DNA of 64,000 nucleotides, taken from positions 397,501-461,500 of the forward strand of contig NZ_CP072865.1 in assembly GCF_017948245.1 (NCBI RefSeq), given 5' to 3'. The notes under the pieces were generated by a model. That model made no database searches. It was not told the origin of the DNA and saw only the letters and a program-made list of their open reading frames with translations. Both the position numbers and the translations under genes were made by a program. This stretch comes from Rhizobium sp. NLR16a. GTDB lineage: Bacteria > Pseudomonadota > Alphaproteobacteria > Rhizobiales > Rhizobiaceae. Below are positions 2,517-19,635 of this stretch, one piece after another; the first letter of the stretch is position 1; each line of letters begins with the position of its first letter.

Positions 2517-2522
2517 CTTCCC

Positions 2523-2654: not shown

Positions 2655-2660
2655 TCAACT

Positions 2661-3039: not shown

Positions 3040-4041
3040 ATGGAACTTATCGTCGCCCTTGGCCTGATCGTCTTGAAGGTCGCGTTCCTGATTGCGATCC
3101 TGCTGTTGCTACCCTTGCCGCTCACCTGGCTGGAACGCAAGGTTGCCGGGCACATGCAGCAGCGGATGGGGCCGATGCGCGTGGGATGGCACGGGCTGTT
3201 GCAGCCGGTGGCGGACGGAATCAAGCTCCTGACGAAAGAGGATCACATCCCGGCTGAGGCCGACCGGTTTCTGTTCAAACTGGCGCCAATCCTGGCACTC
3301 GCCCCACCCTTTGTGGTGTTCGTCGCGATCCCCTTCGGCGAAACTGTCTCGGTCCTCGGCCACGGGATCACGCTCTACGTCTCCAACATGAATGTGGCGC
3401 TCCTTTTCGTCTTCTCGGTGATCGGGATCGAGGTTTATGGCGTCATCTTCGGCGGTTGGGCCTCCAACAGCAAATACGCTGTCCTGGGCAGCCTCAGAAC
3501 CTGCGCGCAGATGATCAGCTACGAAATCCCCATGGGGTTCGCGGTCATCGGCGTGGTCATGCTGGCGCAATCCATGAGCCTTCTCGAGATCGTGCGGGCG
3601 CAGGCCGATGTCTGGAACATCGTCTACCAACCGATCGGATTCTTCGTGTTCTTCGTCGCCGGATTGGCCGAAGCGCAGCGCATCCCCTTCGACTTGGCGG
3701 AAGCGGAAGGCGATCTGGGGGCCGGGTTCCATACCGAATACAGCGGTATCCGCTTTGCCTTCTTTATGGTCAGCGAATATGCCATCGTATTGCTTGTGTC
3801 GGTTTTGGTGGTGATCCTGTTCTTCGGCGGTTGGAACGGCGTTCTGGTTCCTTTGCCACCGCTCCTGTGGTTTGCTCTCAAGGTCGCGTTGTTCGTCTAT
3901 GTGTTTATTTGGTTTCGCTTCACTTTCCCCCGCTACCGCTACGATCAGTTGATGGCGATCGGATGGAAAGTCTTGCTTCCTCTGTCGATGGCGAACATAA
4001 TTGTAACTGGTGTACTTTTAGGGGCCGTAACGGGTCCATAG
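3040..4041 (+). CDS. nuoH: NADH-quinone oxidoreductase subunit H
   Basis: A 333-residue integral membrane subunit that forms the quinone-binding site at the junction of the peripheral and membrane arms of complex I. About eight hydrophobic segments are visible. The NuoH signatures LERKVAGHMQQRMGP near the N-terminus and the conserved acidic quinone-loop region around RIPFDLAEAEGDLGAGFHTE (about residues 208-227) are present. Length is normal for the family. It is the first gene of a rightward group with nuoI 10 bases downstream. The upstream ribosome binding site is weak. It is unusual that nuoH and nuoI are on the opposite strand to the other twelve nuo genes. Confidence 0.96.
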   Translation: MELIVALGLIVLKVAFLIAILLLLPLPLTWLERKVAGHMQQRMGPMRVGWHGLLQPVADGIKLLTKEDHIPAEADRFLFKLAPILALAPPFVVFVAIPFGETVSVLGHGITLYVSNMNVALLFVFSVIGIEVYGVIFGGWASNSKYAVLGSLRTCAQMISYEIPMGFAVIGVVMLAQSMSLLEIVRAQADVWNIVYQPIGFFVFFVAGLAEAQRIPFDLAEAEGDLGAGFHTEYSGIRFAFFMVSEYAIVLLVSVLVVILFFGGWNGVLVPLPPLLWFALKVALFVYVFIWFRFTFPRYRYDQLMAIGWKVLLPLSMANIIVTGVLLGAVTGP

Positions 4042-4051
4042 CGAGGCGGCG

Positions 4052-4618
4052 ATGTCGCGCGCGCAGGACAGAGTTGGAACATGGATTGGCTGGACGTTTT
4101 TTGCCGATCTGGCGAGCGCCTTGGCTCTGACCTTCGGCTACATGTTCTCCAAATCCGTGACCATGCAGTATCCGGACAACGAAAAATGGTTGCCTTACTC
4201 GCGTTACCGAGGGCATCACTTTTTGAAGCGTGATGAAGAGGGCGAGATCAAGTGCGTGGCCTGCGAACTCTGCGCGCGGATCTGTCCCTGCGACTGCATC
4301 GAAGTCGTCCCGTACGAGGACGAGAAGGGCAATCGCCATCCGGCCAAATTTGAAATCGACACAGCACGCTGCCTGTTCTGCGGGTTGTGCGAGGACGCCT
4401 GCCCGGCGGATGCAATCGCGCTTGGGCAACAATACGAATTTTCCAGTTTTTCCTCCGCTGACCTGGTGATCGGGCGCGACGATCTGCTCGTCAAGCCGGG
4501 TAAGGCGGCAACCGGCGGCGGCGTGGTTGCCGCGCGCCTCAATACGAAGAAGGACGTAATTGTCGAGACCAACGAGACGCAGGGCTACAACTGGTGGCGG
4601 AATATCCGGCGAACATGA
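4052..4618 (+). CDS. nuoI: NADH-quinone oxidoreductase subunit I (two 4Fe-4S ferredoxin)
   Basis: A 188-residue peripheral-arm subunit carrying clusters N6a and N6b, which pass electrons toward NuoB. Two ferredoxin motifs are clear: CVACELCARICP at about residues 68-79 and CLFCGLCEDACP at about 107-118. Start ATG follows a GAGGCGGCG ribosome site 10 bases after nuoH. It has about 25 residues after the canonical C-terminal region, ending in an aromatic stretch (NWWRN). It is co-transcribed with nuoH and probably the CBS gene. Confidence 0.96.
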   Translation: MSRAQDRVGTWIGWTFFADLASALALTFGYMFSKSVTMQYPDNEKWLPYSRYRGHHFLKRDEEGEIKCVACELCARICPCDCIEVVPYEDEKGNRHPAKFEIDTARCLFCGLCEDACPADAIALGQQYEFSSFSSADLVIGRDDLLVKPGKAATGGGVVAARLNTKKDVIVETNETQGYNWWRNIRRT

Positions 4619-4663
4619 ACGCGCGCCAGCCATCAAACCGAAGCGCTCAAACAGGAGGCTCAG

Positions 4664-5104
4664 ATGTTTGTCGGTGAAATCATGAAGAACAAGGGTGTCG
4701 GTGTCATCGCAGTCGCCCCCGATCAGACGATGGTGGAGGTACTGAGGTTGTTTCGAGACAACAATATCGGCTTCGTCGTCGTGAGCCGCTCGAACAGCAA
4801 ATACCTGGGTACACTGTCGGAGCGCGATTGCTGCAATGCGATGGCGGAATATGGGGCCGAGGCGGCGGCGATGCGGGTCGCGGACATCATGAACCGCAAT
4901 GTGGCGATGTGTTCGACACAAGATTTGCTGCCCGTCGCGATGGGGATCATGACCCAGCGGCGCACGCGCCATGTGTTGGTCACGGATGGAGGCAACGTGG
5001 TCGGCGTGGTCAGCATCGGAGATGTGGTTAAGCACAGGCTCGACGAAGCGCAGCGTACAGAGCAGGAGCTGCAGGATTACATATGCGGGGCCAGGTATCA
5101 CTGA
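4664..5104 (+). CDS. CBS-domain pair protein linked to the nuo cluster
   Basis: 146 residues made almost entirely of two CBS modules (about residues 5-62 and 72-130), ending in a short charged tail. CBS pairs bind adenine nucleotides and usually sense energy state. Recognisable motifs are GTLSERD in the first module and GVVSIGDVV in the second. An AGGAGG site lies 8 bases before the ATG. There is no attached enzyme or transporter domain, so a stand-alone regulatory role is likely, and its place 45 bases after nuoI suggests a link to complex I or respiration. That functional link is inferred from position only. Confidence 0.85.
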   Translation: MFVGEIMKNKGVGVIAVAPDQTMVEVLRLFRDNNIGFVVVSRSNSKYLGTLSERDCCNAMAEYGAEAAAMRVADIMNRNVAMCSTQDLLPVAMGIMTQRRTRHVLVTDGGNVVGVVSIGDVVKHRLDEAQRTEQELQDYICGARYH

Positions 5105-5172
5105 CGCCGCCAACTCGATGTGATGACGCTGGGGCGGGCAGCTTGCCGCGGAGCCTTGCGGTGCCCCGATCC

Positions 5173-5273: not shown

Positions 5274-5281
5274 TGAGATAT

Positions 5282-7861
5282 TCAAACCCCACGCCAGATC
5301 CGGCCTGGGCGGTCGACGTCAGGAGTGGGATGCGCCTTCTGGACTTCCACCGCGCATGGATATTCGCCCCGCCGCAGCAGGCTGTTGAGACGCAAGGCTC
5401 CATAGTTTTCCGGAACGAAGACGAGGCCCTTGGGAAACCGCCTGTCGACCTTGAGCTGCGCCGACAGTTCGCCTTGGCCGGAACGCACGATTACCCGATC
5501 GCCATCCGAAAGGCCAAGCTCCGCAGTATCCTGCGCGCTCATCGCGACATAGGGATCGTTGGCGACCGTGTTCAGCGTGTCCGACCGTTCGGAAAGATAT
5601 CCGTTGTGGAACAGGCAGTCGCCGGTGATCAGCATGAGCCGGTCGGCTGCTGTTGGAACGGACGGCGGCGCAAGGAACACGCCAGCCGATAATGTCGGTA
5701 CCGCCCTGGTGAATGCGCCGTCGGCGCCAAGTCCGTCCTGCGTCAACCCCTGATAGGCCGGAACCAGCCGGGCAATCTCGTCGAAAATTTCGCCTCGCGT
5801 CGATGGCCGCAGCGCCTGGTTGCGTAGCGCGGCGACGAAGTCGATAATCGCCAGATTGCCTCGCGCCTCGAAAACGGGCTCACGGAACTTGCGAACATTC
5901 TGGATCCGGCCTTCGTTGTTGGTGAACGTTCCAGATTCCTCGCCATAGCCCGCCGCGGGCAAGACGACCTCGGCCATGCCCGCCGTCTCCGTGAGGAACG
6001 CGTCCTGCACGATCAGGAGATCAGCCGCGCCAAGCGCCCGCGTCACAAAATCCCGGTCGGGATAGGCGACCAGGGGGTCGGTTCCGACGATGTAGAGCGC
6101 GCCCATCCGGCCACCGACGCAGAGCTCCAGCATGGCGTCGAGATTCGCGCCGGGTCCGGACGGGATTTGGGCGTCCCAGTTTCGGGCAAGAGCTGCGCGC
6201 GCCGCGTCATCGGCGACCGCCCGCAGCCCCGGCAGAGCCGCCGGCAGGACCCCCATGTCCCAGGCACCCATCTGGTTGGCACGGTCGAAGAGAAACTGCA
6301 TCGCCGGGCCCTTGCCTAGCAGGCGCAGGCCCTGCAGGAGGTTGTTGAGCTGCAGCAGCGTCGCGCGCGCTTCGGGTGATCTCAGGAGGTCGACGCTGAC
6401 AAGCACGGTGACGCTACGGGCTTCCTTGAGCGCGGTGGCGAGACGATCCGGCCCGTCGCCGCCGGTGCCCGCTGCCGGCCAGCCGATCGTCGCACCGATG
6501 TCCGCAATTGAGTCGCCCGGCAAGGTCTGACCGGCCGCCGCCATGAGCGCGGTTACCACCGCCGCAAGGCTTGCCTCTTCTCCGCCCGGCGGCACGCGAA
6601 CCACCACCCTGGCATCGGCGTCCAGACGCGAGGGCCGCGCCGAAAGCATCAGCAATCCGGCCTGCCGTCGCCGCACGGCGTCTCGCAGCAGGTATTCGGT
6701 GACGGGATTCTCCTCGGTCACGTTGCCGCCGACGACGAGCACGCAGTCGTTGCCGATTACGTCGTCCAGCGGTGCGCGGCTGTAGAAAGTTCCCAATAGC
6801 GGGCCGAGCGTATCGAAGGGCGCGGCCCAGCGTGACGAACAATCAATGTTGTTGGTCCGGAATACTGTTCGCATCAGCTTCTGGAACTGATAAAGCACCT
6901 CGTTGGGCAGGCGAGGCGAGGCCAGCCCGCCGGCATTCTTGGCTTCGACAGCCAGCAGTCGCCGGCGCAGATAGTCCCCCGCTTCGTCCCAGGAAACCGG
7001 AACCAGGGCGCCATCCTGACGGATCATTGGCTGCTTGATCCGGTCCCGGCTTGCAACGAAATCGAGGCCGAAGCGTCCTCGCACGCAGAGAGTTTCGTGG
7101 TTGACACCTTCGTCCCACTTCGAGCGCACCCGCATGAACTCGCCCTTGCGCGTGCCCACTGTCAGCTGGCAACCGGTGCCACAATGCGGGCAGATCGTGT
7201 CGGTCTCTACGAGATCCCAGGGGCGCGCCTTATAGCGGTAGGGGAAGCTCATCAGCGCGCCGACCGGGCAGACCTCGACGCAATTGCCGCACTGGTCGCA
7301 ACTCGCCAGACTGCCCTCGAAGCCGGTGACGGCGGTATCCATGCCTTTCTCGACGGTGCCCAGCGCCACCGCGCCGACGACCTCCTCGCACATCCGGACG
7401 CAGCGCTGGCACTGGATGCAGCGGTTGACATTCATGATGATAACCGGGCTCAGGCGAATGTCCTCGGAGTGGAACACACGTTTGTCATCGCGGAACTGGC
7501 TTTCGCGGGGCCCATAGGCCATTACCATGTTCTGAAGCTCGCATTCTCCGCCCTTGTCGCAGATGGGGCAGTCGAGGGGGTGGTTGGCGAGCAGCATGTC
7601 GAGCATGGAAGAGCGCGTTTCCTCGATCAGAGGCGTATTCGTCCGCACGACCATGCCATCGGTGACCGCAGTAGCGCAGGACGGCTGCAGCCGCCGCAGG
7701 CCCTCGATCTCCACCAGACACATGCGGCAAGAGGCCAGCGGCGGCAGACGCTTCAGATAGCAAAAGGTCGGGATATCGATGCCCAAACGCCGGGCGGCCT
7801 GCAACACTGTCGAGCCAGCCTCAACCTCCAGCGTTTGTCCATCGATCGTGACTTTAAGCAT
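5282..7861 (-). CDS. nuoG: NADH-quinone oxidoreductase subunit G
   Basis: An 859-residue iron-sulfur subunit of the peripheral arm. The N-terminal 2Fe-2S domain (CYLKRL...CRMC...) is followed by the histidine-type cluster segment CPICDKGGEC, two 4Fe-4S motifs (CIQCQRC and CDQCGNCVEVCP) and a CPHCGTGC motif with a fourth cysteine 27 residues later (cluster N7 type). A long molybdopterin-oxidoreductase-like domain follows, with a dinucleotide-binding fold at the C-terminus. The start at 7861 follows GAGGAAACC, so I reject the nine upstream codons. It is much longer than the roughly 690-residue NuoG of the usual alphaproteobacterial operon and resembles the E. coli-type long form. It is last in the leftward operon, 33 bases after nuoF. 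Confidence 0.95.
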   Translation of the reverse strand: MLKVTIDGQTLEVEAGSTVLQAARRLGIDIPTFCYLKRLPPLASCRMCLVEIEGLRRLQPSCATAVTDGMVVRTNTPLIEETRSSMLDMLLANHPLDCPICDKGGECELQNMVMAYGPRESQFRDDKRVFHSEDIRLSPVIIMNVNRCIQCQRCVRMCEEVVGAVALGTVEKGMDTAVTGFEGSLASCDQCGNCVEVCPVGALMSFPYRYKARPWDLVETDTICPHCGTGCQLTVGTRKGEFMRVRSKWDEGVNHETLCVRGRFGLDFVASRDRIKQPMIRQDGALVPVSWDEAGDYLRRRLLAVEAKNAGGLASPRLPNEVLYQFQKLMRTVFRTNNIDCSSRWAAPFDTLGPLLGTFYSRAPLDDVIGNDCVLVVGGNVTEENPVTEYLLRDAVRRRQAGLLMLSARPSRLDADARVVVRVPPGGEEASLAAVVTALMAAAGQTLPGDSIADIGATIGWPAAGTGGDGPDRLATALKEARSVTVLVSVDLLRSPEARATLLQLNNLLQGLRLLGKGPAMQFLFDRANQMGAWDMGVLPAALPGLRAVADDAARAALARNWDAQIPSGPGANLDAMLELCVGGRMGALYIVGTDPLVAYPDRDFVTRALGAADLLIVQDAFLTETAGMAEVVLPAAGYGEESGTFTNNEGRIQNVRKFREPVFEARGNLAIIDFVAALRNQALRPSTRGEIFDEIARLVPAYQGLTQDGLGADGAFTRAVPTLSAGVFLAPPSVPTAADRLMLITGDCLFHNGYLSERSDTLNTVANDPYVAMSAQDTAELGLSDGDRVIVRSGQGELSAQLKVDRRFPKGLVFVPENYGALRLNSLLRRGEYPCAVEVQKAHPTPDVDRPGRIWRGV

Positions 7862-7894
7862 GGTTTCCTCACAACCCTTATTCAGCACACTCCT

Positions 7895-9160
7895 TCAGTG
7901 AAACGGGCACCTCCGCTCCTCGACATGGGCGACGAATTCATCTCGGAAATGCGCGAGTGCTGCCCGCAATCCCATCGCTGCACCGTCACCCAAGGCACAA
8001 AACGTATTGCCGAAAATGCCCTTGCAGAGCATCTCCAGCTGCTCCAGATCGCCGGGCGCTCCATCCCCGCCTTCAACCCGGCGCAGGACCTTCACAACCC
8101 AGTTCAATCCTTCCCGACAGGGCGTGCACTTGCCGCAGGACTCATGGTGGAAGAACTCGACGATCCTGGTGGCGACCTTGACCATGCAGGTGCTATCGTC
8201 GATCACGATAACGCCAGCCGAACCGAGCATCGAGCCGGCGGCAGCCAGCGAGTCAAAATCCATTCTCACCTCCAGCCCGTGCTCAGGGATGACCGGCGCG
8301 GAGACCCCGCCCGGGATCACTGCCTTGATCTTGCGTCCCGGCAAGGCCCCGCCGGCATGTTCCTCGACCAGCTCGCGCAGCGGTATGCCCATCGGCAACT
8401 CGTAGAGGCCGGGTTTGCGCACCTGCCCACTGAGGCAGTAGAGCTTCGGGCCGGGGCTCTTGTCCGGGCCGATGCCGCGGAACCAGTCCGCGCCCCGCAT
8501 CACGATATGCGGCACGCAGGCCAGCGTCTCGACATTGTTGATTACAGTCGGGCTGGCGTAGAGCCCAGCCACGGCCGGAAACGGCGGCTTCAATCGCGGC
8601 TGCGCCCGCTTGCCCTCAAGCGACTCGAGCATCGCAGTCTCCTCGCCGCAGATATAGGCGCCGGCGCCGCAGTGGATGTGGACGGCGAAATTGAAATCCG
8701 AGCCCAGAATGCGCTTTCCGAGATAGCCCCTTGCGTGGGCCTCGGCGATCGCCTGCTCCAGACGACGGATCGCCGTCACATATTCTCCGCGAATGTAGAC
8801 ATAGGCGGTTTCAGCCCCAATCGCGTAGGCACTTACCGCCAGCCCCTCAATCAGTTGATGTGGGTCACGCTCCATGATGATCCGGTCCTTGAACGTGCCC
8901 GGTTCGCCTTCATCGGCGTTGCAGCACAGATATGTCGGCTTGCCGGCGCGCTTCGGCACGAAACCCCATTTCATGCCCGTCGGGAATCCGGCACCGCCGC
9001 GACCGCGCAGGTTGGACCGTTTGACAAGGTCGATAATCTCGTCAGGCGTGTACTCGCGCAGCGCCTTCGCCAGCGCCTGATAGCCGCCTCCAGCCTCGTA
9101 GGTCGACACCAAATGACCATCCGCCACATCGACATTTTTGAGAAGAACCGGCTCGAACAT
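7895..9160 (-). CDS. nuoF: NADH-quinone oxidoreductase subunit F (NADH/FMN)
   Basis: A 421-residue flavoprotein subunit that oxidises NADH through FMN. The glycine-rich NADH/FMN motif RGRGGAGFPTGMKW lies at about residues 51-64. The N3 cluster ligands are SCGKCTPCREG (about 347-357) plus a later conserved cysteine in GNTFCALGDG. Length is typical. It starts 4 bases after nuoE, showing tight coupling within the operon. Confidence 0.97.
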   Translation of the reverse strand: MFEPVLLKNVDVADGHLVSTYEAGGGYQALAKALREYTPDEIIDLVKRSNLRGRGGAGFPTGMKWGFVPKRAGKPTYLCCNADEGEPGTFKDRIIMERDPHQLIEGLAVSAYAIGAETAYVYIRGEYVTAIRRLEQAIAEAHARGYLGKRILGSDFNFAVHIHCGAGAYICGEETAMLESLEGKRAQPRLKPPFPAVAGLYASPTVINNVETLACVPHIVMRGADWFRGIGPDKSPGPKLYCLSGQVRKPGLYELPMGIPLRELVEEHAGGALPGRKIKAVIPGGVSAPVIPEHGLEVRMDFDSLAAAGSMLGSAGVIVIDDSTCMVKVATRIVEFFHHESCGKCTPCREGLNWVVKVLRRVEGGDGAPGDLEQLEMLCKGIFGNTFCALGDGAAMGLRAALAHFRDEFVAHVEERRCPFH

Positions 9161-9164
9161 GGCG

Positions 9165-9683
9165 CTACTCTCCCGGCAGCCGCGCAGAGGCGTGCTCGAC
9201 GCTCGCGGCTCCCGCTATCGCCCGCAGGTTGTCCAGCAGTGCGTTTATCCGCATCACATCAAGGTGGGCGTGGTAATCGTCGCCGACTTGCATCACCGGA
9301 GCCATCTCGCAGGCGCCGAGGCATTCGACAGTCGAGAGCGTGAACAGCCCGTCCGGGGTGGTGCCGCCTTTCCTGATCCCCAGCACTGTTTCCAGATGGT
9401 CTAGCAGGTCCTGCGATCCGCACAGCATGCAGGAAACATTGTTACAGAGCTGCAGGTGGAACATCCCCACCGGTTCGGTATGGAAGAGGGTGTAGAAGGT
9501 CGCCAACTCGTAGACCCAGATCCGCTCGACTCCGAGAATGTCGGCGATCTCTTCCAACACTGGCCCAGGCAGATGGCCATGTACTTCCTGCGCGATCAGG
9601 AGCGCGGGCATGATCGCAGAGCGCTGGTCGGGATACCGCGCCGCCGCCTCTTCGATCTTTTCGCGCATGGTCATCGCATTCAA
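9165..9683 (-). CDS. nuoE: NADH-quinone oxidoreductase subunit E (2Fe-2S)
   Basis: A 172-residue thioredoxin-fold subunit holding cluster N1a beside NuoF. The four cysteine ligands are seen in CNNVSCMLCG and CLGACEMAP (spacing C-x4-C and C-x3-C of the family). Residues 1-70 form the helical part typical of NuoE (YPDQRSAIMPALLIAQE). It starts 7 bases after nuoD. Confidence 0.95.
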   Translation of the reverse strand: MNAMTMREKIEEAAARYPDQRSAIMPALLIAQEVHGHLPGPVLEEIADILGVERIWVYELATFYTLFHTEPVGMFHLQLCNNVSCMLCGSQDLLDHLETVLGIRKGGTTPDGLFTLSTVECLGACEMAPVMQVGDDYHAHLDVMRINALLDNLRAIAGAASVEHASARLPGE

Positions 9684-9690
9684 ATCCTTG

Positions 9691-10905
9691 CTACTTGTCC
9701 ACCTCCGCCATCACGGGATCAAGGCTGCCGAGCACGGCGATCATGTCCGCCAGATAGCGGGCGTTCGTGACCCCGAAGAGGGCCTGAAGATTGACGAACG
9801 AGGGGGCCCGCACCTTCATGCGGAACGGTTTTGGAGACCCGTCGCTGATGATGTAAAAGCCAAGCTCGCCCTTTGGCGCCTCGATTGCCGAATAGACCTC
9901 GCCCCTCGGCACCTTGAAGCCGTAAGCCGACAGGTCGAAATGCTGGATCAGCGCCTCCATCGAGCAGTGCACCCGATCCTTGTCCAGCGGGAAGGCGATT
10001 GTCGGTATGTCGATCTGGAACGGCCCCTCAGGCATCTGGTTGATGCATTGTTCGATGATCCCTATGCTCTCGCGCATCTCATCGACGCGGCATCGCCAGC
10101 GTGCATAGCAATCGCCCTCGTCACGGGTGATGACGTTGAAATCGAGCCGGTCGTAGATCTCGTAGGGCTCGTCGCGCCGGATGTCCCAGTCGACACCGGA
10201 AGCTCGCAGGTTCGGGCCGCTGAGGCCGAGATCGACAGCATCCTCTGCGGAGATCACGCCGATCCCCTTCGTGCGATTGAGAAACACCCGGTTATCTTCG
10301 AGCAGTCGCTCATAGTCGCGGATACGGTTCGGAAAGATGTCGCAAAACTCCCGGATCCTGGGGAAGAACCCATCAGGCAGATCCTCGCGCACCCCGCCAA
10401 CCCGGCAGAAGGACGTGTGCATGCGCGCACCGGTGATCATTTCCAGGAGGTCCATGATCATTTCACGCTCGCGCATGACGTAAAGCAGCGCGGTCATGGC
10501 GCCGAGATCCATCGGCAGCGCGCCGGTGATCAGGAGGTGACCGGAGATCCGTGCTAGCTCGGCCATCATCACGCGGATATATTGCGCTCGGATTGGGGCT
10601 TCTATGCCGAGGAGTTTCTCGACCGCCAGCGCGAAGGCGAGGTTGTTCGAGGGCGGACAGAGATAGTCGAGCCGATCCGTCAGCGGGAAAATCTGGGTAT
10701 AGGTGAAGCTCTCCGCCAGTTTTTCAGTGCCACGATGGAGATAGCCGATATGCGGATCGACGCGCTCGACGAACTCGCCGTCCAGTTCGAGGACGAGCCG
10801 AAGAACCCCATGGGTGCTGGGGTGCTGCGGACCGAGGTTGAGAAGCACTTCTCTGGTATTGAGCGCTTCACCCTCAGGCCTGCTGAGCTCGGTGACTTCA
10901 GTCAT
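9691..10905 (-). CDS. nuoD: NADH-quinone oxidoreductase subunit D
   Basis: A 404-residue 49-kDa-type subunit that forms the quinone cavity with NuoB and NuoH. The family signature LNLGPQHPSTHGVLRL is near the N-terminus (about residues 26-41). The conserved segments PHIGYLHRGTEKL and the C-terminal PSFVNLQAL are present. NuoC and NuoD are separate genes here, unlike the fused E. coli form, as expected in alphaproteobacteria. Confidence 0.97.
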   Translation of the reverse strand: MTEVTELSRPEGEALNTREVLLNLGPQHPSTHGVLRLVLELDGEFVERVDPHIGYLHRGTEKLAESFTYTQIFPLTDRLDYLCPPSNNLAFALAVEKLLGIEAPIRAQYIRVMMAELARISGHLLITGALPMDLGAMTALLYVMREREMIMDLLEMITGARMHTSFCRVGGVREDLPDGFFPRIREFCDIFPNRIRDYERLLEDNRVFLNRTKGIGVISAEDAVDLGLSGPNLRASGVDWDIRRDEPYEIYDRLDFNVITRDEGDCYARWRCRVDEMRESIGIIEQCINQMPEGPFQIDIPTIAFPLDKDRVHCSMEALIQHFDLSAYGFKVPRGEVYSAIEAPKGELGFYIISDGSPKPFRMKVRAPSFVNLQALFGVTNARYLADMIAVLGSLDPVMAEVDK

Positions 10906-10934
10906 CTCAACGTTCCGGCGTAGAACGGCCTCCC

Positions 10935-11971: not shown

Positions 11972-12324
11972 TCCAGCGCTCCTTTCAGCCAGGCGTAGGC
12001 GAAGCCCACGAGAAGCAGCAATATGAAGACGATCATCTCGATATAGCCGACCAGCCCGATCTCTTTCAGGACGACGGCCCAGGGAAAGAGGAACATCGCT
12101 TCGACATCGAAAACGACCAGCAGGATCGCGAGGATAAAGAACGGCACCCTGAAGCGGCCCGCCGCCGCCTCGCCCGCTGCGTCCATGCCGCATTCATAAG
12201 GCATGTTCTTGGCGGGATAGGGATTGGATGGGCGCAGCAGCGAGGAAACCAACAACGTCACCCCCGCCACCAGAACGACTCCGGCGATCATGAAAAGAAC
12301 CGGCAAGAATTCCATTGCAGTCAT
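11959..12324 (-). CDS. nuoA: NADH-quinone oxidoreductase subunit A
   Basis: A small membrane subunit of about 121 residues with three hydrophobic segments. The signature [18 protein letters not shown] precedes [21 protein letters not shown], typical of NuoA. The start is uncertain. I chose the ATG giving MTAMEFLP (12324), because no strong ribosome site marks the ATG ten codons upstream (12354) and another possible start is at 12315. About 100 bases separate it from nuoN upstream, and no terminator was seen there. Confidence 0.92.
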
Positions 12325-12424
12325 ATCACTGCACCGGTTGCCCACCGACCTCATCCCGACTTGGGCAATCCTTCCTTCTCTTTCAAGTCTATTCCGTCGG
12401 TGTGATCATTGCAAATCCAATCGC

Positions 12425-13864
12425 TCACCCGCCAAAGACCGAGTCTTGGGCAAGCTTCAGAAACCACGACGGAAATAGGCCGATGCCGATGGTGCCGGCA
12501 GCGGTGACGGCGAGTGTCGCGCCCACCAGAGGCGTCAGCGCCGGGGCGAACGCCCTCTTCGGCTCGTGCATATAGATCACCATGACGATGCGGATGTAGA
12601 AATAGGCGGCGACCGCGCTGAACAGCACTGCGATGACCGCCAGCATGACGAAACCATGCTCGACGAGGGCGACCAGCACGTAAAACTTGGCGAAGAACCC
12701 GGCGGTCGGCGGAATGCCGGCCAATGAGAAGAGATAGAGCAGCATCAGAAGCGCCAGCCCCGGATGTGACTTGGCGAAACCCGCATAGTCTTCGATGACC
12801 TCGCCCGAGAAATCGCCGTTCCGCATCATGACGACGGCGCCGAAAATGCCGAGATTCATGAAGGCGTAGATCAGCAGATAGAGCATCACGCTGGCGATCC
12901 CATCGGCGCCGCCAGCGGCCACGCCGAAAATGGCGAAGCCGGCATGGGCGATACTGGAATAGGCCAGGAGACGCTTGAAATTATCCTGCACCAGCGCCAC
13001 GAAGCTGCCAAGCGCCATCGTCACCACCGCGATGACGGCAACGATGATCCAGACGTCCGAGGCTGCGACCAGAGGGTTGAGGAACACCCGCAGAATCACC
13101 GCGAACCCCGCCGCCTTGGGGCCTACCGACATGAAGGCGGTGATCGTTGTCGGCGCGCCTTCATAGACGTCCGGCAGCCACATGTGGAAGGGAACCGCGC
13201 CGACCTTGAAGACCAGCCCGGCGACGATGAAGACCACCGCCAGCAACAATCCTGGATCGAGCGGATCGCCAGTCACGGCTGCAGCCATCCCGTCCAGTTG
13301 CGTTGTGCCGGTGAGCCCGTAGACCAGCGAAACGCCGTAAAGGAAAATCCCGGTCGAGACCGCGCCGAGGATGACATATTTCAGCGCTGCTTCGTTCGAC
13401 CGCCGCTCACGCCGCAGGAAGCCGGTCAGCACATAGGTGCAAATCACCATCAGTTCGAGGCCTGCATAGATCGACAGGAGATCGGTCGCCGAGGCCATGA
13501 TCATCATGCCCGAAAGCGCAAAGAGCAGCAGGACATAGTATTCGCTGCTCCCGATCCCTTCGATATCGGCATATCTTCGCGAAAGGAGGAATGTCAGAAC
13601 GGTGGCTAGGTAGAAAACGAACTTGAAGAAGACCGCGAAGCGGTCGGCGACGAACATGCCCGTGTAGGCCGGCCGTACCTCGCTCGCCAGCATGAGCGTC
13701 GCCAAGGCGGCAATCAATATGATCGCGACCGACGCCCAGACAAGGAAATCTTCCTGTCCCCTTCGCACAAACTGTCCCAGGATCAGCAGGATGCAGGCGC
13801 CGGTGATCACCACGATCTCGGGCAGGCTCGCTAGGGCCGACTGGAAAAGCGCGGCGGCGGTCAT
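12425..13864 (-). CDS. nuoN: NADH-quinone oxidoreductase subunit N (antiporter-like)
   Basis: A 479-residue proton-pumping subunit with about 14 membrane helices. The helix-7 lysine and following motif are present (LVFKVGAVPFHMWLPDVY), as is the second central lysine (SVGPKAAGF). The N-terminus lacks the two extra helices as in other bacterial NuoN. ATG overlaps the nuoM stop by four bases. Confidence 0.95.
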   Translation of the reverse strand: MTAAALFQSALASLPEIVVITGACILLILGQFVRRGQEDFLVWASVAIILIAALATLMLASEVRPAYTGMFVADRFAVFFKFVFYLATVLTFLLSRRYADIEGIGSSEYYVLLLFALSGMMIMASATDLLSIYAGLELMVICTYVLTGFLRRERRSNEAALKYVILGAVSTGIFLYGVSLVYGLTGTTQLDGMAAAVTGDPLDPGLLLAVVFIVAGLVFKVGAVPFHMWLPDVYEGAPTTITAFMSVGPKAAGFAVILRVFLNPLVAASDVWIIVAVIAVVTMALGSFVALVQDNFKRLLAYSSIAHAGFAIFGVAAGGADGIASVMLYLLIYAFMNLGIFGAVVMMRNGDFSGEVIEDYAGFAKSHPGLALLMLLYLFSLAGIPPTAGFFAKFYVLVALVEHGFVMLAVIAVLFSAVAAYFYIRIVMVIYMHEPKRAFAPALTPLVGATLAVTAAGTIGIGLFPSWFLKLAQDSVFGG

Positions 13865-15336
13865 TGGCCGCTCCCCCTACTGTGCACATGTGTCACCAGA
13901 TGCTTCACCGAGGCATCGATGACGTTGAGAAAGGGTTTCGGATAGAGCCCGACCCAGAGCACGAAGACGGCCAGCGGCAGGATCGCAGCCATCTCACGGG
14001 CGTTCACGTCGCGTATCGTTAACCGGGCGCTTGCGCTGGCCGGGCCCAGCGCGACCTTCCCATACATGCCGAGCAGATAGGCAGCCCCCAGCAATGCGCC
14101 CAGAACGGCGGCCGAGCCAAAGACCAGGTTGGCCGCAAATCCCCCTGACAGCACCAGCAATTCGCCCACGAACGAATTCGTTCCCGGCAACGCCATCGAC
14201 GACAGGGTAAACAGTGCCAGAAACGTGGTGTAGACCGGCGCCACCTTCATCAACCCGCCATAGTCGGCGATGCTGCGGGTATGGGTCCGCTCGTAAATCA
14301 GCCCGACGAACAGGAAGAGGGCGCCTGTCGTCACGCCATGATTGAACATCTGCAGGATGCCGCCCTCGAGCCCGCGGAGGTTCAGCGCAAAAATCCCCAG
14401 TGTTACGAAGCCCATGTGGCTGATGCTGGAATAGGCCACCAGCTTCTTCAGATCGTCCTGCGCCAGCGCGAGCAACCCGCCATAGACGATCGCAAGCACC
14501 GAAAGCGCGAGCATCAGCGTCGAATAATACATCGATGCCTCCGGCAGCATCGGCAGCGAGAACCGCAGGAATCCGTAGGCGCCCATCTTCAGGAGCACGC
14601 CGGCGAGGATAATGCTGCCCGCCGTCGGCGCCTGCACATGGGCGTCCGGCAGCCAGGTATGGAGCGGCACCATCGGCACCTTGACCGCAAAAGCGATCAG
14701 GAAGGCGAAGAACAGCCAGGACTGGATCCGGAACGGCAAGTCCTGCTCTGTCAAGGCGAGGATATCGAAGGTCCTGCCACCGTAGAAATAGAGCACGATG
14801 ACACCGATCAGGAACAGGAGGCTGCCCGCCAGCGTGTAGAGGAAAAACTTGATCGCCGCATAGACCCGACCCTCGCCGCCCCACACGCCGATGATGAGGT
14901 ACATCGGGATCAGCATCGCCTCCCAAAAGACGTAGAAAAGGAACAGATCGAGCGCACAGAAGACGCCGAGCATCAGCGCTTGCATGAAGAGCAGGCAGAT
15001 CATGAATTCCTTCACCTTGCTGTCGATCGCGACCCAGGAGGCGAGCACGCAGATCGACCCCAACAGTGCGGTCAGGAACACGAAGAGCGCGCTGATTCCG
15101 TCGATGCCAAGGGCATAATTGATCCCGAGCGCGGGTACCCACGGGTGCGTCTCGGTGAACTGCATGGCATGGGTCGTGGTGTCGAAGCTGACCAGCATGG
15201 CGATGCAGAGCGCAAGGTCGAGGACGGTGAAAGAGAGCGCAGTCCACCGCACCGCATCGGCACCGCGCAGGAACATCAGAATCGCGGCCCCGACAACGGG
15301 TGTGAATATGATGAGGCTGAGCAGCGGGAAGCCCAT
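13861..15336 (-). CDS. nuoM: NADH-quinone oxidoreductase subunit M (antiporter-like)
   Basis: A 491-residue proton-pumping subunit. The helix-5 glutamate (YVFWEAMLIPMYLIIGVWGG) and helix-7 lysine (FAVKVPMVPLHTWLPDAH) are intact. Start at 15336 follows AGGGGG, 8 bases after the nuoL stop, so I reject the six upstream codons. It is in the canonical L-M-N order and is therefore taken as the ordinary NuoM. A second NuoM-like gene lies at 17364-18827. Confidence 0.95.
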   Translation of the reverse strand: MGFPLLSLIIFTPVVGAAILMFLRGADAVRWTALSFTVLDLALCIAMLVSFDTTTHAMQFTETHPWVPALGINYALGIDGISALFVFLTALLGSICVLASWVAIDSKVKEFMICLLFMQALMLGVFCALDLFLFYVFWEAMLIPMYLIIGVWGGEGRVYAAIKFFLYTLAGSLLFLIGVIVLYFYGGRTFDILALTEQDLPFRIQSWLFFAFLIAFAVKVPMVPLHTWLPDAHVQAPTAGSIILAGVLLKMGAYGFLRFSLPMLPEASMYYSTLMLALSVLAIVYGGLLALAQDDLKKLVAYSSISHMGFVTLGIFALNLRGLEGGILQMFNHGVTTGALFLFVGLIYERTHTRSIADYGGLMKVAPVYTTFLALFTLSSMALPGTNSFVGELLVLSGGFAANLVFGSAAVLGALLGAAYLLGMYGKVALGPASASARLTIRDVNAREMAAILPLAVFVLWVGLYPKPFLNVIDASVKHLVTHVHSRGSGQ

Positions 15337-15344
15337 GGCACCCC

Positions 15345-17120
15345 CTATCGCCACGCCACGACGAAGACGGCGGTGGCTGCGATAAGACCGACGATCATCG
15401 CTAGCACGTAATGGGTCACGACACCCGTCTGGAGCCGCCTGAGCCGCCCGCCGCCGTTCAGGATCGAATGCGCAATGCCATTCACGACGGCATCCACGCC
15501 GGCAAGATCGAGCCGGAGTCCTGCCCGCGCCGCGCCGCGCAGCAAGGGCAGCGCCGCGGTCTCGGAGACATTGCTCACCGCCTGCTCATAGCGCGCCAGC
15601 GGTCTTTCGGCGAGCCACATGAAGGCCCGCGCACCCTTGCGGTAAAACCAGTCAGTGTCGAGGCTGATCGTGTTCTCGGGATCGAGCGCCCAGAGGAACA
15701 GCACGAACCCCAGGGCGGTGAACATCAGCAGCCCGAGGCTCTCCATCACATGCAAACCCGTATAGGGTTCGAAATCAACCGGATAGGGCAGAAGCGCATA
15801 AAGCGGCTGGGGGAACACCCCGATCGCAATGCAGAGCACCGCCGCCATGCCCATGGCAATCAGCATGTTGCGCGGCGGCTCCCGCGCCTCCAGTTTCCGG
15901 TCCGTCCCGAAGAACATGTAATAGGGAAGCTTGAGGCCAGTGTGCAGGAACGTCCCGGACGATGCCATGGTCAGCGCCAGCACCACCAGTGCGCGGTGAT
16001 CCGCTCCTGCAGCCGCTATCACCATCGATTTGGTGACGAACCCCGAGAAGAACGGGAAGGCCGAGATCGCGAAGGCGCCGACCATGTAAAGCGCCACGGT
16101 CAGCGGCATGGTTTTGTAAAGCCCGCCAAGCTCGGTGAGCTTGCGTCGGCCGGTAACGTAGATGACGGCGCCGGCACCCATGAACAGCAGCGCCTTGTAG
16201 AGGATATGCGCGAAGGCGTGGCTGGTGGCTCCGTTCACCGCCATCTCGGTCCCGATGCCGATACCCGCGATCATGTAGCCCACCTGGCTGACGATGTGAT
16301 AGGCGAGAAGCCGCCGGCAATCGTTCTCCAGCACGGCGTAGATGACGCCGTAGAGCGCCATGATGGTGCCGAGCCAGACAAGAAGCTCGGTCCCCGGAAA
16401 CGCCCGCGCCATCACATAGACGGCGGTCTTGGTGGTAAACGCGCTCATGAACACCGCCCCGGTGACGGTCGCCTCCGGATAGGCATCGGTCAGCCAGGCA
16501 TTGAGCGGCGGCACGGCCGCGTTGAGGATGAAGCCGGCGAGGATCAGGTAGTCGCCGACCCCCATTCCTCCGTTGGTGAGGGCCCCCGCGATCGGGCCGA
16601 AAAGCAGTGAACCGGTGGCGAGCCCGTGGGAAATGATGCCGCCGAGCAGGACGACGCCGCCGGTGATATGGACCATGAGGTAACGGAACCCGGCCCGGAT
16701 CGCCGGCCCACCATGCTGCGCGAAGACCAGATAGGCGGAGGCGAATGCCATGCCCTCCCAGAACAGGTAGAGGGTCAGGTAGTCACCGGCAAACACCACG
16801 CCAAGTGCGCTGCCGACATAGACGAATGCCGCCACGTGCTGGCCGGCATCCGTCAGGTGCAGCGCGTAGACCATGCCGATCAGCGCCATGATGGTGAAAA
16901 CGGTGGCAAAGACGATGCTGAGCTTGTCCACTTTCGCGATCAGGATCTCCTGCCCGATGAACCGCGCTTCGCCATAGCTGCCCGGCTCCATCGCAAGCAC
17001 GGCAAGGATCGCCAGCGCAGGGATCAGAAGCAGATAGGCCTTGCGGACCCACCCGCCGAGGAAAGGGATCGGCAGGGCGCCAAGAATAAAGAGCAGAGCC
17101 GGATGGATGAAGTCAGTCAT
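15345..17120 (-). CDS. nuoL: NADH-quinone oxidoreductase subunit L with lengthened lateral helix region
   Basis: A 591-residue distal antiporter-like subunit. The core has the helix-5 glutamate (LFWEGMAFASAYLV, E122). The position of the usual helix-7 lysine before the PxxxWL motif is asparagine (N200 in FILNAAVPPLNAWL), while a lysine follows in TTKTAVYVMAR. After the core comes a long charged amphipathic stretch (about residues 488-570) and a last membrane helix, the NuoL lateral-helix arrangement. From the DWFYxK motif to the C-terminus there are about 103 residues, against about 73 in E. coli NuoL as I recall it. This fits a complex with an extra antiporter module to span. It overlaps the small gene upstream by 8 bases. 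Confidence 0.9.
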   Translation of the reverse strand: MTDFIHPALLFILGALPIPFLGGWVRKAYLLLIPALAILAVLAMEPGSYGEARFIGQEILIAKVDKLSIVFATVFTIMALIGMVYALHLTDAGQHVAAFVYVGSALGVVFAGDYLTLYLFWEGMAFASAYLVFAQHGGPAIRAGFRYLMVHITGGVVLLGGIISHGLATGSLLFGPIAGALTNGGMGVGDYLILAGFILNAAVPPLNAWLTDAYPEATVTGAVFMSAFTTKTAVYVMARAFPGTELLVWLGTIMALYGVIYAVLENDCRRLLAYHIVSQVGYMIAGIGIGTEMAVNGATSHAFAHILYKALLFMGAGAVIYVTGRRKLTELGGLYKTMPLTVALYMVGAFAISAFPFFSGFVTKSMVIAAAGADHRALVVLALTMASSGTFLHTGLKLPYYMFFGTDRKLEAREPPRNMLIAMGMAAVLCIAIGVFPQPLYALLPYPVDFEPYTGLHVMESLGLLMFTALGFVLFLWALDPENTISLDTDWFYRKGARAFMWLAERPLARYEQAVSNVSETAALPLLRGAARAGLRLDLAGVDAVVNGIAHSILNGGGRLRRLQTGVVTHYVLAMIVGLIAATAVFVVAWR

Positions 17121-17367
17121 AATAGTCCTCGCGCCGCATCAGCCCGACCCGATGGCCGAGAAACTTGGAAACGAAGATAAGCAGGACACAGGAGACGAAT
17201 CCGTAGACGGCGGACCAGCCCGGCAGACTGTCCCACAGATATTCGGCGTGCTCGCGGAAGACCAGAAAGTCGGCGACGACGATCAGGACGAGCACGAGGT
17301 AGAACAGTCGGCGCCGCCGCCTCGCATATTGCTCGGCACCAAAGAAGTCGACGACACGCTTGATCAT
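17113..17367 (-). CDS. small two-helix membrane protein inside the nuo operon
   Basis: 84 residues. A basic N-terminal stretch (YARRRRR) precedes a hydrophobic segment (about residues 21-37). A soluble loop and a second segment (about 53-70) follow, with an acidic end (REDYYD). I do not recognise a family. It overlaps its neighbours on both sides (ATGA with the NuoM-like gene and 8 bases with nuoL), so it is translated as part of the operon. Its place exactly between the extra antiporter-like subunit and NuoL suggests an accessory or assembly subunit of the enlarged complex. That is an inference from position. Confidence 0.75.
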   Translation of the reverse strand: MIKRVVDFFGAEQYARRRRRLFYLVLVLIVVADFLVFREHAEYLWDSLPGWSAVYGFVSCVLLIFVSKFLGHRVGLMRREDYYD

Positions 17368-18827
17368 CGGATCACTCCGTCTGCCAGGGTAAGAAAATAG
17401 CTCGGGAAAATGCCCATCAGCACCGACAGGATCGCCGTTGCGACCAGCGGAATCGTCACCAGTGGAATTTCACGGACCGTCGTGCGGCTCTCCTGCGTCT
17501 CCGCCTGGAAGAAGGCGGCATAGCTGACCGGCAGGAAATAGGCGGCGTTCAGGATTGAGCTCACCAGGAGCACGACCAGGAACGCGGTCTCTCCCGCCGC
17601 CACGGCCCCCTTCGCCAGATACCACTTGCTGACGAAGCCCGCGGTCGGCGGTATCCCGATCATGCTGAGCGAGGCGACGAAAAATGCCCCCATCGTCCAG
17701 GGCAGCCTGCGGCCGATACCGGCCATGTCGCTGATGTTGCGCTTGCCCGACGCGCAATAGATCGACCCGGCGCAGAAAAAGAGCGTGATCTTGGAGAATG
17801 CGTGCGCCGCGATGTGGATGATCCCGCCGACCATCGCGACCGGCGACAACAGAACCGCGCCCAGGACGATGTAGGAGAGCTGGCTGACCGTCGAATAGGC
17901 GAGCCTGGCCTTCAGGTCGTCCCGCGTCAGGGCGTAAACCGACGCCATCAGGATCGTGAACGAAGCCAGATAGGCCGTGGCGATGCCGAGACCCAGCCCA
18001 CCCACTAGTCCGGTGCCGAAAACATGGAACACCACCCGCAGAACGCAGAACACGCCCATCTTGACCACTGCCACTGCATGCAAAAGCGCGCTGACCGGTG
18101 TCGGCGCGACCATCGCGGCGGGCAGCCAGGCGTGCATCGGCATCACGGCGGCCTTGGCGAAGCCGAAAAGATAGCAGAAATAGACGACCGTCAGCAGCGC
18201 CGCCGAGGCATCGCTCCCCGCCAGCAGTCCCCCCGCGACAAAGTCGAGCGACCCCGCAATATGGTAAGTCAGCGCCAGTGCGGCGAGCAGCGCGCTTTTC
18301 GAGGCGCCCATCAGATAAACGAGGTACTTGCGGCCACCCCTCCATCCCTCCTCGTCCTCGTGGTGGTAGACGAGCGGATAGGTGACGAGGCTGAGCACCT
18401 CGTAGAAGATCACCAGCGTAAACAGATTGGCGGCGAAGGCGCCCCCGGCGGCGGCCGCAAGACTGCTGGCGAAGCAGGCGAAGAACCGGGTCTGCGCATG
18501 CTCGTTCAAATGCCGCATGTAGCCAATGGAATAGATCGCCGCCACGATCCATAGCAGCGACGAGACGGTGGCAAACACCATTCCGAGCGCATCGACCCGG
18601 AAAGCAAAGTCGATCCCCGGCAGAATCTCGAACAGGCGCAATTCGACCGTCCCGCCCGCCAGCACCGTGGGCGCCATCGACAAGACAATCGCGAACATGG
18701 CGATCGCGGCCAATGGCGAGACCAGATTGCGAAGTCTCTCGCGGTTATTCAAAAGGAGAACTGCAAGGGCGGCCAGACCGGCGACGGCGATGGCAAGCAA
18801 CGGCCGGATCGATACAACCGGGTCCAA
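17364..18827 (-). CDS. extra NuoM/MrpD-like antiporter subunit of complex I
   Basis: 487 residues, about 14 membrane helices. It has the helix-5 glutamate (LVIFYEVLSLVTYPLVYHH), the helix-7 lysine (LFGFAKAAVMPMHAWLPAAM) and the second central lysine (AVVKMGVFCVLR), so it looks like a competent proton channel. It is the fourth antiporter-like subunit in this operon, placed between nuoK and the small membrane gene. The start is a TTG at 18827, 8 bases after AAAGGA and 5 bases after the nuoK stop. Longer upstream reading is nuoK in another frame and is rejected. Lack of a lateral helix separates it from NuoL. An Mrp-type antiporter subunit is the alternative reading, but no other mrp genes are nearby. 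Confidence 0.88.
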   Translation of the reverse strand: MDPVVSIRPLLAIAVAGLAALAVLLLNNRERLRNLVSPLAAIAMFAIVLSMAPTVLAGGTVELRLFEILPGIDFAFRVDALGMVFATVSSLLWIVAAIYSIGYMRHLNEHAQTRFFACFASSLAAAAGGAFAANLFTLVIFYEVLSLVTYPLVYHHEDEEGWRGGRKYLVYLMGASKSALLAALALTYHIAGSLDFVAGGLLAGSDASAALLTVVYFCYLFGFAKAAVMPMHAWLPAAMVAPTPVSALLHAVAVVKMGVFCVLRVVFHVFGTGLVGGLGLGIATAYLASFTILMASVYALTRDDLKARLAYSTVSQLSYIVLGAVLLSPVAMVGGIIHIAAHAFSKITLFFCAGSIYCASGKRNISDMAGIGRRLPWTMGAFFVASLSMIGIPPTAGFVSKWYLAKGAVAAGETAFLVVLLVSSILNAAYFLPVSYAAFFQAETQESRTTVREIPLVTIPLVATAILSVLMGIFPSYFLTLADGVIR

Positions 18828-18832
18828 AGCCG

Positions 18833-19135
18833 CTATCCTTTCATCACCGTCACGTCGTCGATCTTGAGGGTGGATTTGTTCCTCACGAGGGCAACCAGGA
18901 TACCGAGGGCGACGGCAACTTCCGCCGCGGTGATTGCGATGACGAAGATCGCGAAGATCTGCCCGCGGAAATCGGCGTGGTAACGCCCGAAAGCGGTGAA
19001 ATTGATGTTGACCGAGTTGAGCAGCAGCTCCAGCGACATCAGTACGACAAGAATATTGCGCCTGAGCAGCACGCCCGCCGCTCCGATCACGAACAGGACC
19101 ACTCCGAGCACAATATACCACCAGAGCGGAACCAT
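18833..19135 (-). CDS. nuoK: NADH-quinone oxidoreductase subunit K
   Basis: 100 residues with three membrane helices. The motif [20 protein letters not shown] carries the conserved helix-2 glutamate, and a second conserved glutamate lies in [13 protein letters not shown] overlaps the nuoJ stop (TGATG), preceded by AAGGAG inside nuoJ. An upstream GTG is possible but overlaps nuoJ more. Confidence 0.95.
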
Positions 19136-19635
19136 CACCCCTGCTCCTTCCGCGCCAGCATGATGGCGCCGACCAAGGCCGCCAGCAGGATTACGGAGGC
19201 GGTTTCAAACGGCAGGAGATAGTCGGCGAAAAGTGCTGTGCCAAGCTGCCTGACCTCATCGCCGCCGCCCATCGCGACGGGCTCCACGACCGAAAAGCGG
19301 TCGCTCCAGAGCACCAGCACGAGCATCTCGACCCCGAGCAGGACGAGCAGTATCAGAGCCGGGAGGTTGCCGCCCGGCAAGAACCGCTGCAACACCGCTT
19401 CGCGCACATCGATCATCATGATCACGAACAGGAACAGGACCATGATCGCGCCGATATAGACGAAGATCTGGATGACCGCGAGCAACGGCGCCTCGAGCAA
19501 GACGAAGATTGCGGAGATCTGCAGAAAACACGCCATCAGCGCCAATGCGCTGTGAACCGGATTGCGCGCCAGGACCACCGTCAGGGCCGTGATCACGGAT
19601 ACCGCAGCGAACAGAAGAAAGAACCCCTGATCCAT
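19135..19635 (-). CDS. nuoJ: NADH-quinone oxidoreductase subunit J
   Basis: 166 residues with five hydrophobic segments. It has NuoJ features: [20 protein letters not shown] followed by [20 protein letters not shown], the pi-bulge helix region. The start at 19635 (MDQGFF) follows GGAGG by 10 bases. It is the first gene of the leftward operon J-K-M-like-small-L-M-N-A-B-C-D-E-F-G, so the main promoter should lie in the region to its right. Confidence 0.95.

What the first reader, a model, noticed from the sequence alone, without database searches (positions are those of the whole stretch)
3040..19635. Complex I cluster with four antiporter-like subunits
All 14 usual subunits (nuoA-N) are present, plus a second NuoM/MrpD-like gene at 17364-18827 that keeps the helix-5 Glu and both central Lys residues. 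Ordinary complex I has three antiporter-like subunits. Enlarged forms with a fourth pump have been described from genome surveys (the 2M-type complex I, reported in rhizobia and nitrite oxidisers among others) and proposed to move a fifth proton per turnover. Here it is next to an rRNA operon, so probably chromosomal.
Basis: partly seen in the sequence, partly recalled or inferred. Interest (0 to 1): 0.8.

Follow-up and report, generated by a model that had tools for sequence, protein, structure and literature searches.

The report
Rhizobial complex I with fourth pump-like subunit
This is a known second version of the respiratory enzyme complex I found in root-nodule bacteria, in which two antiporter-like proteins take the place of one; the added one has lost a lysine thought to be essential for pumping, so whether it pumps an extra proton is doubtful and can now be tested.

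Summary
The four antiporter-like subunits (APLS) are real, but the filing is off. This is not a 2M complex (canonical NuoL plus a second NuoM). No gene in the cluster reaches the NuoL cut-off. Two Mrp-named proteins, D1 (17364-18827) and D2 (15345-17120), sit where nuoL would be, with an overlooked 84-aa ORF between them. That is the "green complex I" described from rhizobia in 2016; gene order equals a Sinorhizobium meliloti plasmid copy. The genome also has a canonical complex I.

New relative to the passages I could read: (1) the arrangement is not only rhizobial; record titles span eight phylum-level groups, and the same D1-S-D2 trio ends free-standing Mrp operons; (2) D2's lateral helix is 75-78 residues in 67 of 69 cases, against 52 in 30 of 30 canonical alphaproteobacterial NuoL and 76 in 14 of 14 2M NuoL; (3) D2 lacks the TM7 lysine in 69 of 69, and the extra NuoM of 2M and five-APLS clusters lacks it in 17 of 17. 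Nearly all enlarged complexes read keep three APLS with that lysine, so a fifth proton is doubtful. Chadwick 2018 and Degli Esposti 2016 could not be read.

The parts
19135..19635 (-). nuoJ
   Evidence: NCBIfam NuoJ models, best 131.5 bits, under that model's cut-off of 154; same place in S. meliloti
18833..19138 (-). nuoK
   Evidence: NF004320 109 bits, cut-off 57
17364..18827 (-).
   Evidence: PRK08375.1-1 834 bits, cut-off 663; PF00662; E143, K225, H250, K256, K401; tree
17113..17367 (-). S: 84-aa ORF with two hydrophobic stretches, overlapping the end of D1 and the start of D2
   Evidence: read from DNA; hydropathy; an S-like ORF lies between D1 and D2 in 44 of 44 fully readable complex-I loci and in Mrp operons; no Pfam family over its cut-off
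15345..17120 (-). D2: APLS with NuoL-type lateral helix; TM7 Lys replaced by Asn200
   Evidence: PRK12668 780 bits, cut-off 564; E122, N200, K231, K364; 73-residue helix 491-563 in the AlphaFold2 model
13861..15354 (-). nuoM (the only NuoM of the cluster; start uncertain)
   Evidence: TIGR01972 644 bits, cut-off 263.8
12425..13864 (-). nuoN
   Evidence: TIGR01770 515 bits, cut-off 332.6
11959..12354 (-). nuoA (start uncertain: 12354 or 12324)
   Evidence: NuoA models, best 106 bits, under that model's cut-off of 163
11468..11971 (-). nuoB
   Evidence: TIGR01957 240 bits, cut-off 142.7
10935..11471 (-). nuoC
   Evidence: TIGR01961 157 bits, cut-off 122.5
9691..10905 (-). nuoD
   Evidence: TIGR01962 619 bits, cut-off 459
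9165..9683 (-). nuoE
   Evidence: TIGR01958 189 bits, cut-off 142
7895..9160 (-). nuoF
   Evidence: TIGR01959 654 bits, cut-off 559
5282..7888 (-). nuoG (start uncertain)
   Evidence: TIGR01973 498 bits, cut-off 470
3040..4041 (+). nuoH
   Evidence: NF004741 364 bits, cut-off 305
4052..4618 (+). nuoI
   Evidence: TIGR01971 166 bits, cut-off 113
4664..5104 (+). CBS-domain protein linked to the cluster
   Evidence: PF00571, two stretches; same place in S. meliloti

Best explanation
The cluster encodes a rhizobial green complex I: an NADH:quinone oxidoreductase whose membrane arm holds NuoN, NuoM, D1 and D2. SHOWN from sequence: four APLS; no NuoL over its cut-off; D1 is a NuoL/MrpA-like core without the lateral helix; D2 carries the lateral helix and closing helix and has no TM7 lysine. 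INFERRED: D2 sits at the far tip, D1 between NuoM and D2, and D2's lateral helix, about one APLS longer than in NuoL, runs back along D1, M and N to clamp the arm. Redox energy drives the NuoN-NuoM-D1 chain as in ordinary complex I (three APLS with the TM5 Glu/TM7 Lys pair, plus the E-channel), about 4 H+ per NADH. D2 is mainly a structural or stabilising end piece, not a full fifth pump. S probably seals the D1-D2 contact.
For: Profiles and domains. Gene order identical to an S. meliloti plasmid cluster and shared by six same-genus loci. Anchor-to-anchor lateral-helix length: 76 in the window; 75-78 in 67 of 69 complex-I D2; 52 in 30 of 30 alphaproteobacterial NuoL (own genome included) and 47 in E. 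coli; 76 in 14 of 14 2M NuoL, an unrelated carrier of the helix; 102 in D2 of both five-APLS clusters L192 and L193. The helix anchor register agrees with one structural superposition: model residue 510 against E. coli NuoL 562 in 7z7s (end of the aligned range), offset 52, which puts W491 on W543; other E. coli entries give offsets near 49. TM7 pattern D1/D2/M/N = K/N/K/K in 43 of 44 fully readable loci. Controls keep TM7 Lys: 30 of 30 alphaproteobacterial NuoL and the 30 best-scoring Nitrospirota NuoM. In P. denitrificans the TM7 change K232Q in ND4 leaves the purified enzyme unable to catalyse NADH:quinone reduction (PMC9802314, passages); MrpA-K223 and MrpD-K219, by my recollection the same position, are called extremely important for antiport (PMC5703873, passages).
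Against: No biochemistry. The order N-M-D1-D2 is inferred from helix length. The helix rule has exceptions: L201 (=L079) has 102 with four APLS (L089 has the same helix but its contig ends in nuoM), and L253 has 76 with three APLS. Mrp-operon D2 measure 57 where the end anchor is kept (8 of 16), 65-92 otherwise and not comparable. TM7 Asn is not special to complex I: 12 of 18 Mrp-context D2 in the tree have it. D2 keeps TM5 Glu, TM8 Lys and TM12 Lys, so some proton path may remain. The lateral-helix stretch of the model has only middling confidence (pLDDT about 51-75).
Confidence: 0.62

Rival explanations
1. Four full pumps: D2 moves protons without a TM7 lysine (using TM8/TM12 Lys or water), giving five protons per NADH as proposed for enlarged complexes I.
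Against: TM7 Lys absent in 69 of 69 complex-I D2 and in 17 of 17 extra NuoM, though kept in 30 of 30 NuoL and 30 of 30 NuoM controls; the equivalent change stops P. denitrificans complex I.
Confidence: 0.25
2. The D1-S-D2 module adds a cation (Na+ or K+) path to complex I, so the enzyme couples NADH oxidation partly to cation movement, as in its Mrp relatives.
For: D1, S and D2 homologues end free-standing operons with mrpE, F, G, MbhD/E-like, B, C and D0 and D1 and D2 group with them at SH-aLRT 100.
Against: No mrpE, F, G or B among the cluster genes scanned; NuoH, J, K and A are present as in other complexes I.
Confidence: 0.08
3. D1, S and D2 are a separate antiporter that merely shares the operon, and the redox complex has only NuoM and NuoN.
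For: Mrp kinship of D1 and D2.
Against: No other NuoL in the cluster; D1, D2, M, N in that order in 43 of 44 fully readable loci; NuoL-like lateral helix of a length that fits four APLS.
Confidence: 0.05

Closest known systems
Green complex I of rhizobia (Degli Esposti & Martinez Romero 2016, not readable here; described in PMC9040806 and PMC7415380, passages)
   Same: Two MrpD-like subunits in place of NuoL; second complex I besides the canonical one; same gene order as the S. meliloti plasmid copy, with I and the CBS gene (and H) divergent.
   Different: Here chromosomal. The S ORF, helix length against NuoL and TM7 loss are not mentioned in the passages I saw.
2M complex I (Chadwick et al. 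2018, not readable here; described in PMC6606698, passages)
   Same: Fourth APLS; lengthened lateral helix (76 residues in both); extra APLS without TM7 Lys.
   Different: 2M has a true NuoL and a NuoM-clade second M; here NuoL is replaced by D1 plus D2.
Complex_I_3 of Ca. Manganitrophaceae (PMC9040806, passages) and the similar five-APLS clusters L192 and L193
   Same: D1 and D2 as here.
   Different: Five APLS (also M2); lateral helix 102; in L192 and L193 no S hit between D1 and D2.
Free-standing Mrp operons ending in D0, D1, S, D2 (L032, L033, L202)
   Same: D1 47-53%, D2 43-52%, S 30-40% identical to the window's over the eleven loci compared (S not found in one).
   Different: mrpE, F, G, MbhD/E-like, B, C and D0 instead of nuo genes (L032's contig ends inside the operon); lateral helix 57 in these three.

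Membership tests
Green complex I | Two MrpD-named APLS replace the single NuoL | tested here: met
   PRK08375.1-1 and PRK12668 over cut-off, no NuoL over cut-off
Green complex I | Rearranged gene order as in rhizobia | tested here: met
   identical to CP050559.1; six same-genus loci as far as the stretches reach
Green complex I | Second complex I in a genome with a canonical one | tested here: met
   canonical L, M, N at C1:2303-2307k
Green complex I | Raised expression in nodules | not testable with these tools
   reported in PMC7415380 (passages); no TTGATN4ATCAA site with up to 1 mismatch in the window
2M complex I | Second gene of the NuoM family | tested here: not met
   D1 173 and D2 130 bits against 263.8 for TIGR01972; D1 TM12 Lys, not Glu. 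The tree alone does not reject D1 with NuoM (AU p 0.358)
2M complex I | Lengthened canonical NuoL | tested here: not met
   no NuoL over cut-off; the lengthened helix is on D2
Free-standing Mrp antiporter | mrpE, F, G, B genes beside the APLS | tested here: not met
   the cluster genes scanned read as nuo, CBS, S or the APLS
Complex I, any | NADH and quinone modules complete (B, C, D, E, F, G, H, I) | tested here: met
   all eight over at least one NCBIfam cut-off

The most novel reading that the evidence does not exclude
In enlarged complexes I, whether enlarged by D2, by a second NuoM, or by both, the number of antiporter-like subunits that keep the TM7 lysine stays at three (43 of 44 fully readable D1-D2 clusters, 14 of 14 fully readable 2M clusters, 2 of 2 five-APLS clusters). 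Enlargement therefore does not add a pump: it adds a non-pumping module plus 24-26 residues of clamp helix, and the stoichiometry stays near 4 H+/2e-, against the current 'fifth proton' (or 'sixth') proposal.
Probability: 0.45. Interest if true: 0.75.

Novelty: new member of a known kind. Interest (0 to 1): 0.5.

Why it matters
How many protons complex I moves, and whether each antiporter-like subunit moves one, is a central question of bioenergetics. Enlarged complexes have been proposed to move a fifth (or sixth) proton, and this enters models of nitrite and manganese oxidisers (PMC6606698, PMC9040806, passages). If the added subunits lack the TM7 lysine, those models need measurement before use, and these enzymes become natural test cases: they carry an APLS without the residue whose removal stops ordinary complex I. 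The D1-S-D2 type is also far more widespread than rhizobia.

Tried and rejected
2M membership: rejected by profiles and residues; the tree alone cannot do it (AU p 0.358 for D1 with NuoM; D1 with NuoL/MrpA has SH-aLRT 79 only). The AU test for D2 with NuoL did not finish. Idea that D2 sits in NuoL's place with D1 as outer cap: set aside because D2's helix is 24 residues longer than NuoL's. Idea that TM7 Lys was lost on joining complex I: not supported, 12 of 18 Mrp D2 in the tree also have Asn, and the paired test had only 2 independent pairs. I first took the genome's two further APLS for Mrp; they are hydrogenase-4 subunits B and F by NCBIfam. FixK/FNR-type box search: none. Paper searches, seen as listings only: for an extra APLS with lysine terms (the two on-topic papers in it hold the word lysine 0 times), for a fourth or additional APLS, and for this arrangement in sulfate reducers (where two sulfate-reducer genome papers were listed and not opened); none of the listed titles is about a missing TM7 lysine. 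Chadwick 2018 and Degli Esposti 2016 are not held, so either may already report some of this. The extra-APLS lineages number only two (D2, and one M2 clade at SH-aLRT 99), so '17 of 17' and '69 of 69' are not independent counts.

Dropped rows: one search sorted 96 D2 rows into 69 complex I, 16 Mrp and 11 unclear; the unclear ones are in no count of helix length or TM7 above. In one search, D1 was readable in 59, M in 56 and N in 47 of the 63 complex-I loci of L052-L131; the totals 62, 61 and 50 add the window, L192 and L193. In L127 NuoN reads Arg at TM7 (the one miss in 44). One search left out five further same-genus rows, the L106 rows, L109, L119 (Mrp, Ser at TM7), L126, L128 and L131, and eleven near-identical rhizobial rows. 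Own NuoL stood twice (L139 is the same protein), so the count is 30, not 31. Only 6 of the 19 same-genus loci and 11 of the 15 other-family loci were opened.
Full report
WHAT IS THERE. The window lies on a 4.06-Mb contig of a 6.58-Mb genome whose 23S is 97-98% identical to Rhizobium and Ensifer records and whose D1 and D2 are nearest to named Rhizobium proteins (98-99%). Behind a 23S-5S-tRNA-Met block lie nuoH, nuoI and a CBS gene on the plus strand, and J-K-D1-S-D2-M-N-A-B-C-D-E-F-G on the minus strand. The genome has nine PF00361 genes: canonical L, M and N, four here, and two hydrogenase-4 subunits (B and F).

THE FOUR APLS. NCBIfam names M and N without doubt (644 and 515 bits over cut-offs of 264 and 333). 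D1 and D2 hit Mrp-named equivalogs (PRK08375.1-1, 834 over 663; PRK12668, 780 over 564) and reach no NuoL or NuoM cut-off. D1 carries PF00662, the ND5/NuoL N-terminal domain; D2 does not. D1 has E143, K225, H250, K256, K401; D2 has E122, N200, K231, K364. The TM8 His is the mark of MrpA and NuoL according to PMC7419157 (passages). In a 95-row quick tree D1 and D2 each form one group with their Mrp-operon homologues (SH-aLRT 100 each), apart from NuoM (100, M2 included), NuoN (100) and NuoL with MrpA (99); the deep joins between these groups are weak, and D1 with NuoM is not rejected (AU p 0.358).

WHAT IT IS CALLED. Yu et al. 2022 (PMC9040806, passages) list two forms with a fourth pump: Nitrospira 2M, and the rhizobial green complex I in which two MrpD-like subunits replace NuoL. 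The order here equals an S. meliloti plasmid cluster. Of 100 relatives searched, 33 have PRK12668 over cut-off and 19 have PRK08375.1-1 over cut-off; within the 60 same-genus genomes (own included) the same 19 have both. I opened 6 of those 19, all complete as far as the stretch reached. A review says the green complex was always upregulated in symbiosis in strains that have it (PMC7415380, passages).

BREADTH. I classed 63 of those 80 loci as complex I. In the 44 where D1, D2, M and N were all readable, S lies between D1 and D2 in 44 and the order D1-D2-M-N holds in 43 (L084 has M first). Record titles of complex-I loci fall in eight phylum-level groups: proteobacteria (alpha, beta, gamma), Desulfobacteraceae and relatives, Acidobacteria, Planctomycetota, Nitrospirota, Nitrospinales, Marinimicrobia and Verrucomicrobia (grouping of titles is mine). 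Among Mrp-type loci, L033 and L202 show Pfam MNHE, MrpF and, in L033, PhaG, MbhD/E, MnhB and Oxidored_q2 genes before D0-D1-S-D2; L032 shows MnhB and Oxidored_q2 and then its contig ends. So the trio occurs in two kinds of machine; the D2 tree needs at least four context changes, and the direction of transfer is open.

THE HELIX RULER. Residues between the conserved start and end of the lateral helix: E. coli NuoL 47; 30 of 30 alphaproteobacterial NuoL 52; complex-I D2 75-78 in 67 of 69, 102 in two; 2M NuoL 76 in 14 of 14, from Nitrospirota (8) and Acidobacteriota or Verrucomicrobiota (6); 102 in D2 of the two five-APLS clusters. Each added APLS goes with 24-26 residues, about 36-39 A at 1.5 A per residue (recalled). 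Two unrelated carriers, NuoL and D2, reach the same 76. This supports four APLS in a row with D2 outermost. Exceptions: L201/L079 (102 with four APLS) and L253 (76 with three; a wider stretch, L271, shows no second nuoM). Yu et al. saw helix inserts in other complexes of Manganitrophaceae too and called them possibly transitional. Of seven single-M Nitrospirota NuoL used as controls, six measured 46-52 and L253 76. A regex count agreed with the alignment count in 57 of 60 rows with both motifs, of 96. AlphaFold2 (54 sequences, mean pLDDT 85.4) makes residues 491-563 one helix, with middling confidence there.

THE MISSING LYSINE. TM7 is Asn in D2 of 69 of 69 complex-I rows and in both five-APLS clusters; three further four-APLS clusters met later (L250, L254, L262) agree. 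D1 has TM7 Lys in 62 of 62, NuoN in 49 of 50, NuoM in 59 of 61, the two misses being the M2 of the five-APLS clusters. In nine Nitrospirota 2M clusters the second NuoM has Ile in 9 of 9 while the first keeps Lys in 9 of 9 (NuoL readable in 8). In six Acidobacteriota or Verrucomicrobiota 2M clusters it has Leu in 6 of 6, with Lys in L, M and N. These second NuoMs are one clade (SH-aLRT 99), so the losses represent two lineages, D2 and M2. Controls: NuoL 30 of 30 and Nitrospirota NuoM 30 of 30 Lys. In Mrp operons D2 is mixed, 12 Asn and 6 Lys of 18 in the tree, so the loss is not special to complex I.

WHAT IT MEANS. In P. denitrificans the TM5 Glu-TM7 Lys pair is described as conserved in each APLS; purified E141Q and K232Q variants could not catalyse, and all active variants pumped four protons (PMC9802314, passages). 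The simplest reading is three working pumps (N, M, D1) plus a non-pumping end piece D2. For 2M the place of M2 within the chain is unknown; an in-line subunit without the Lys would be expected to block coupling, which is unexplained. Direct measurement is needed.

LIMITS. Trees are quick ones without bootstrap. No multimer model. Two key papers unread.

Noticed in passing
window 17113-17367 (-): Unannotated 84-aa ORF S with two hydrophobic stretches, conserved between D1 and D2 in complex I (44 of 44 readable loci) and Mrp operons; not found in the two five-APLS clusters; no Pfam family over cut-off.
   Followed up: partly
L268-L270 (contig of the genome behind L106, Methanophagales archaeon): An mrp operon with twelve APLS genes in about 34 kb: five D2-like, three D1-like, three D0-like and one other; the D2 have TM7 Asn, the rest Lys.
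   Followed up: partly
L049 8543-15711 (own genome, C4): Hydrogenase-4-type locus (subunits B and F over NCBIfam cut-offs); a HyfB-like gene also lies beside the green cluster in L053, Rhizobium freirei.
   Followed up: partly
window 1-3040; L048 218-1031: The cluster starts right behind a 23S-5S-tRNA-Met block here and behind a 5S-tRNA pair in another genome of the same genus.
   Followed up: no
L196 6833-9046: NuoL of 737 aa whose lateral helix contains, by eye, a near-perfect tandem repeat of about 26 residues, a possible way such helices grow by one step.
   Followed up: no
L264-L267 (genomes from the Acidobacteriota search): Another complex type: three APLS, the middle one with a NuoL-like tail by eye, beside NuoB-, C-, D- and H-like genes; all three keep TM7 Lys in all four loci.
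   Followed up: no
window 20061-20720 (-) and 20942-23341 (-): A DUF305-domain membrane protein and a membrane-bound PQQ-dependent dehydrogenase (TIGR03074, 929 bits, cut-off 833) upstream of nuoJ.
   Followed up: partly
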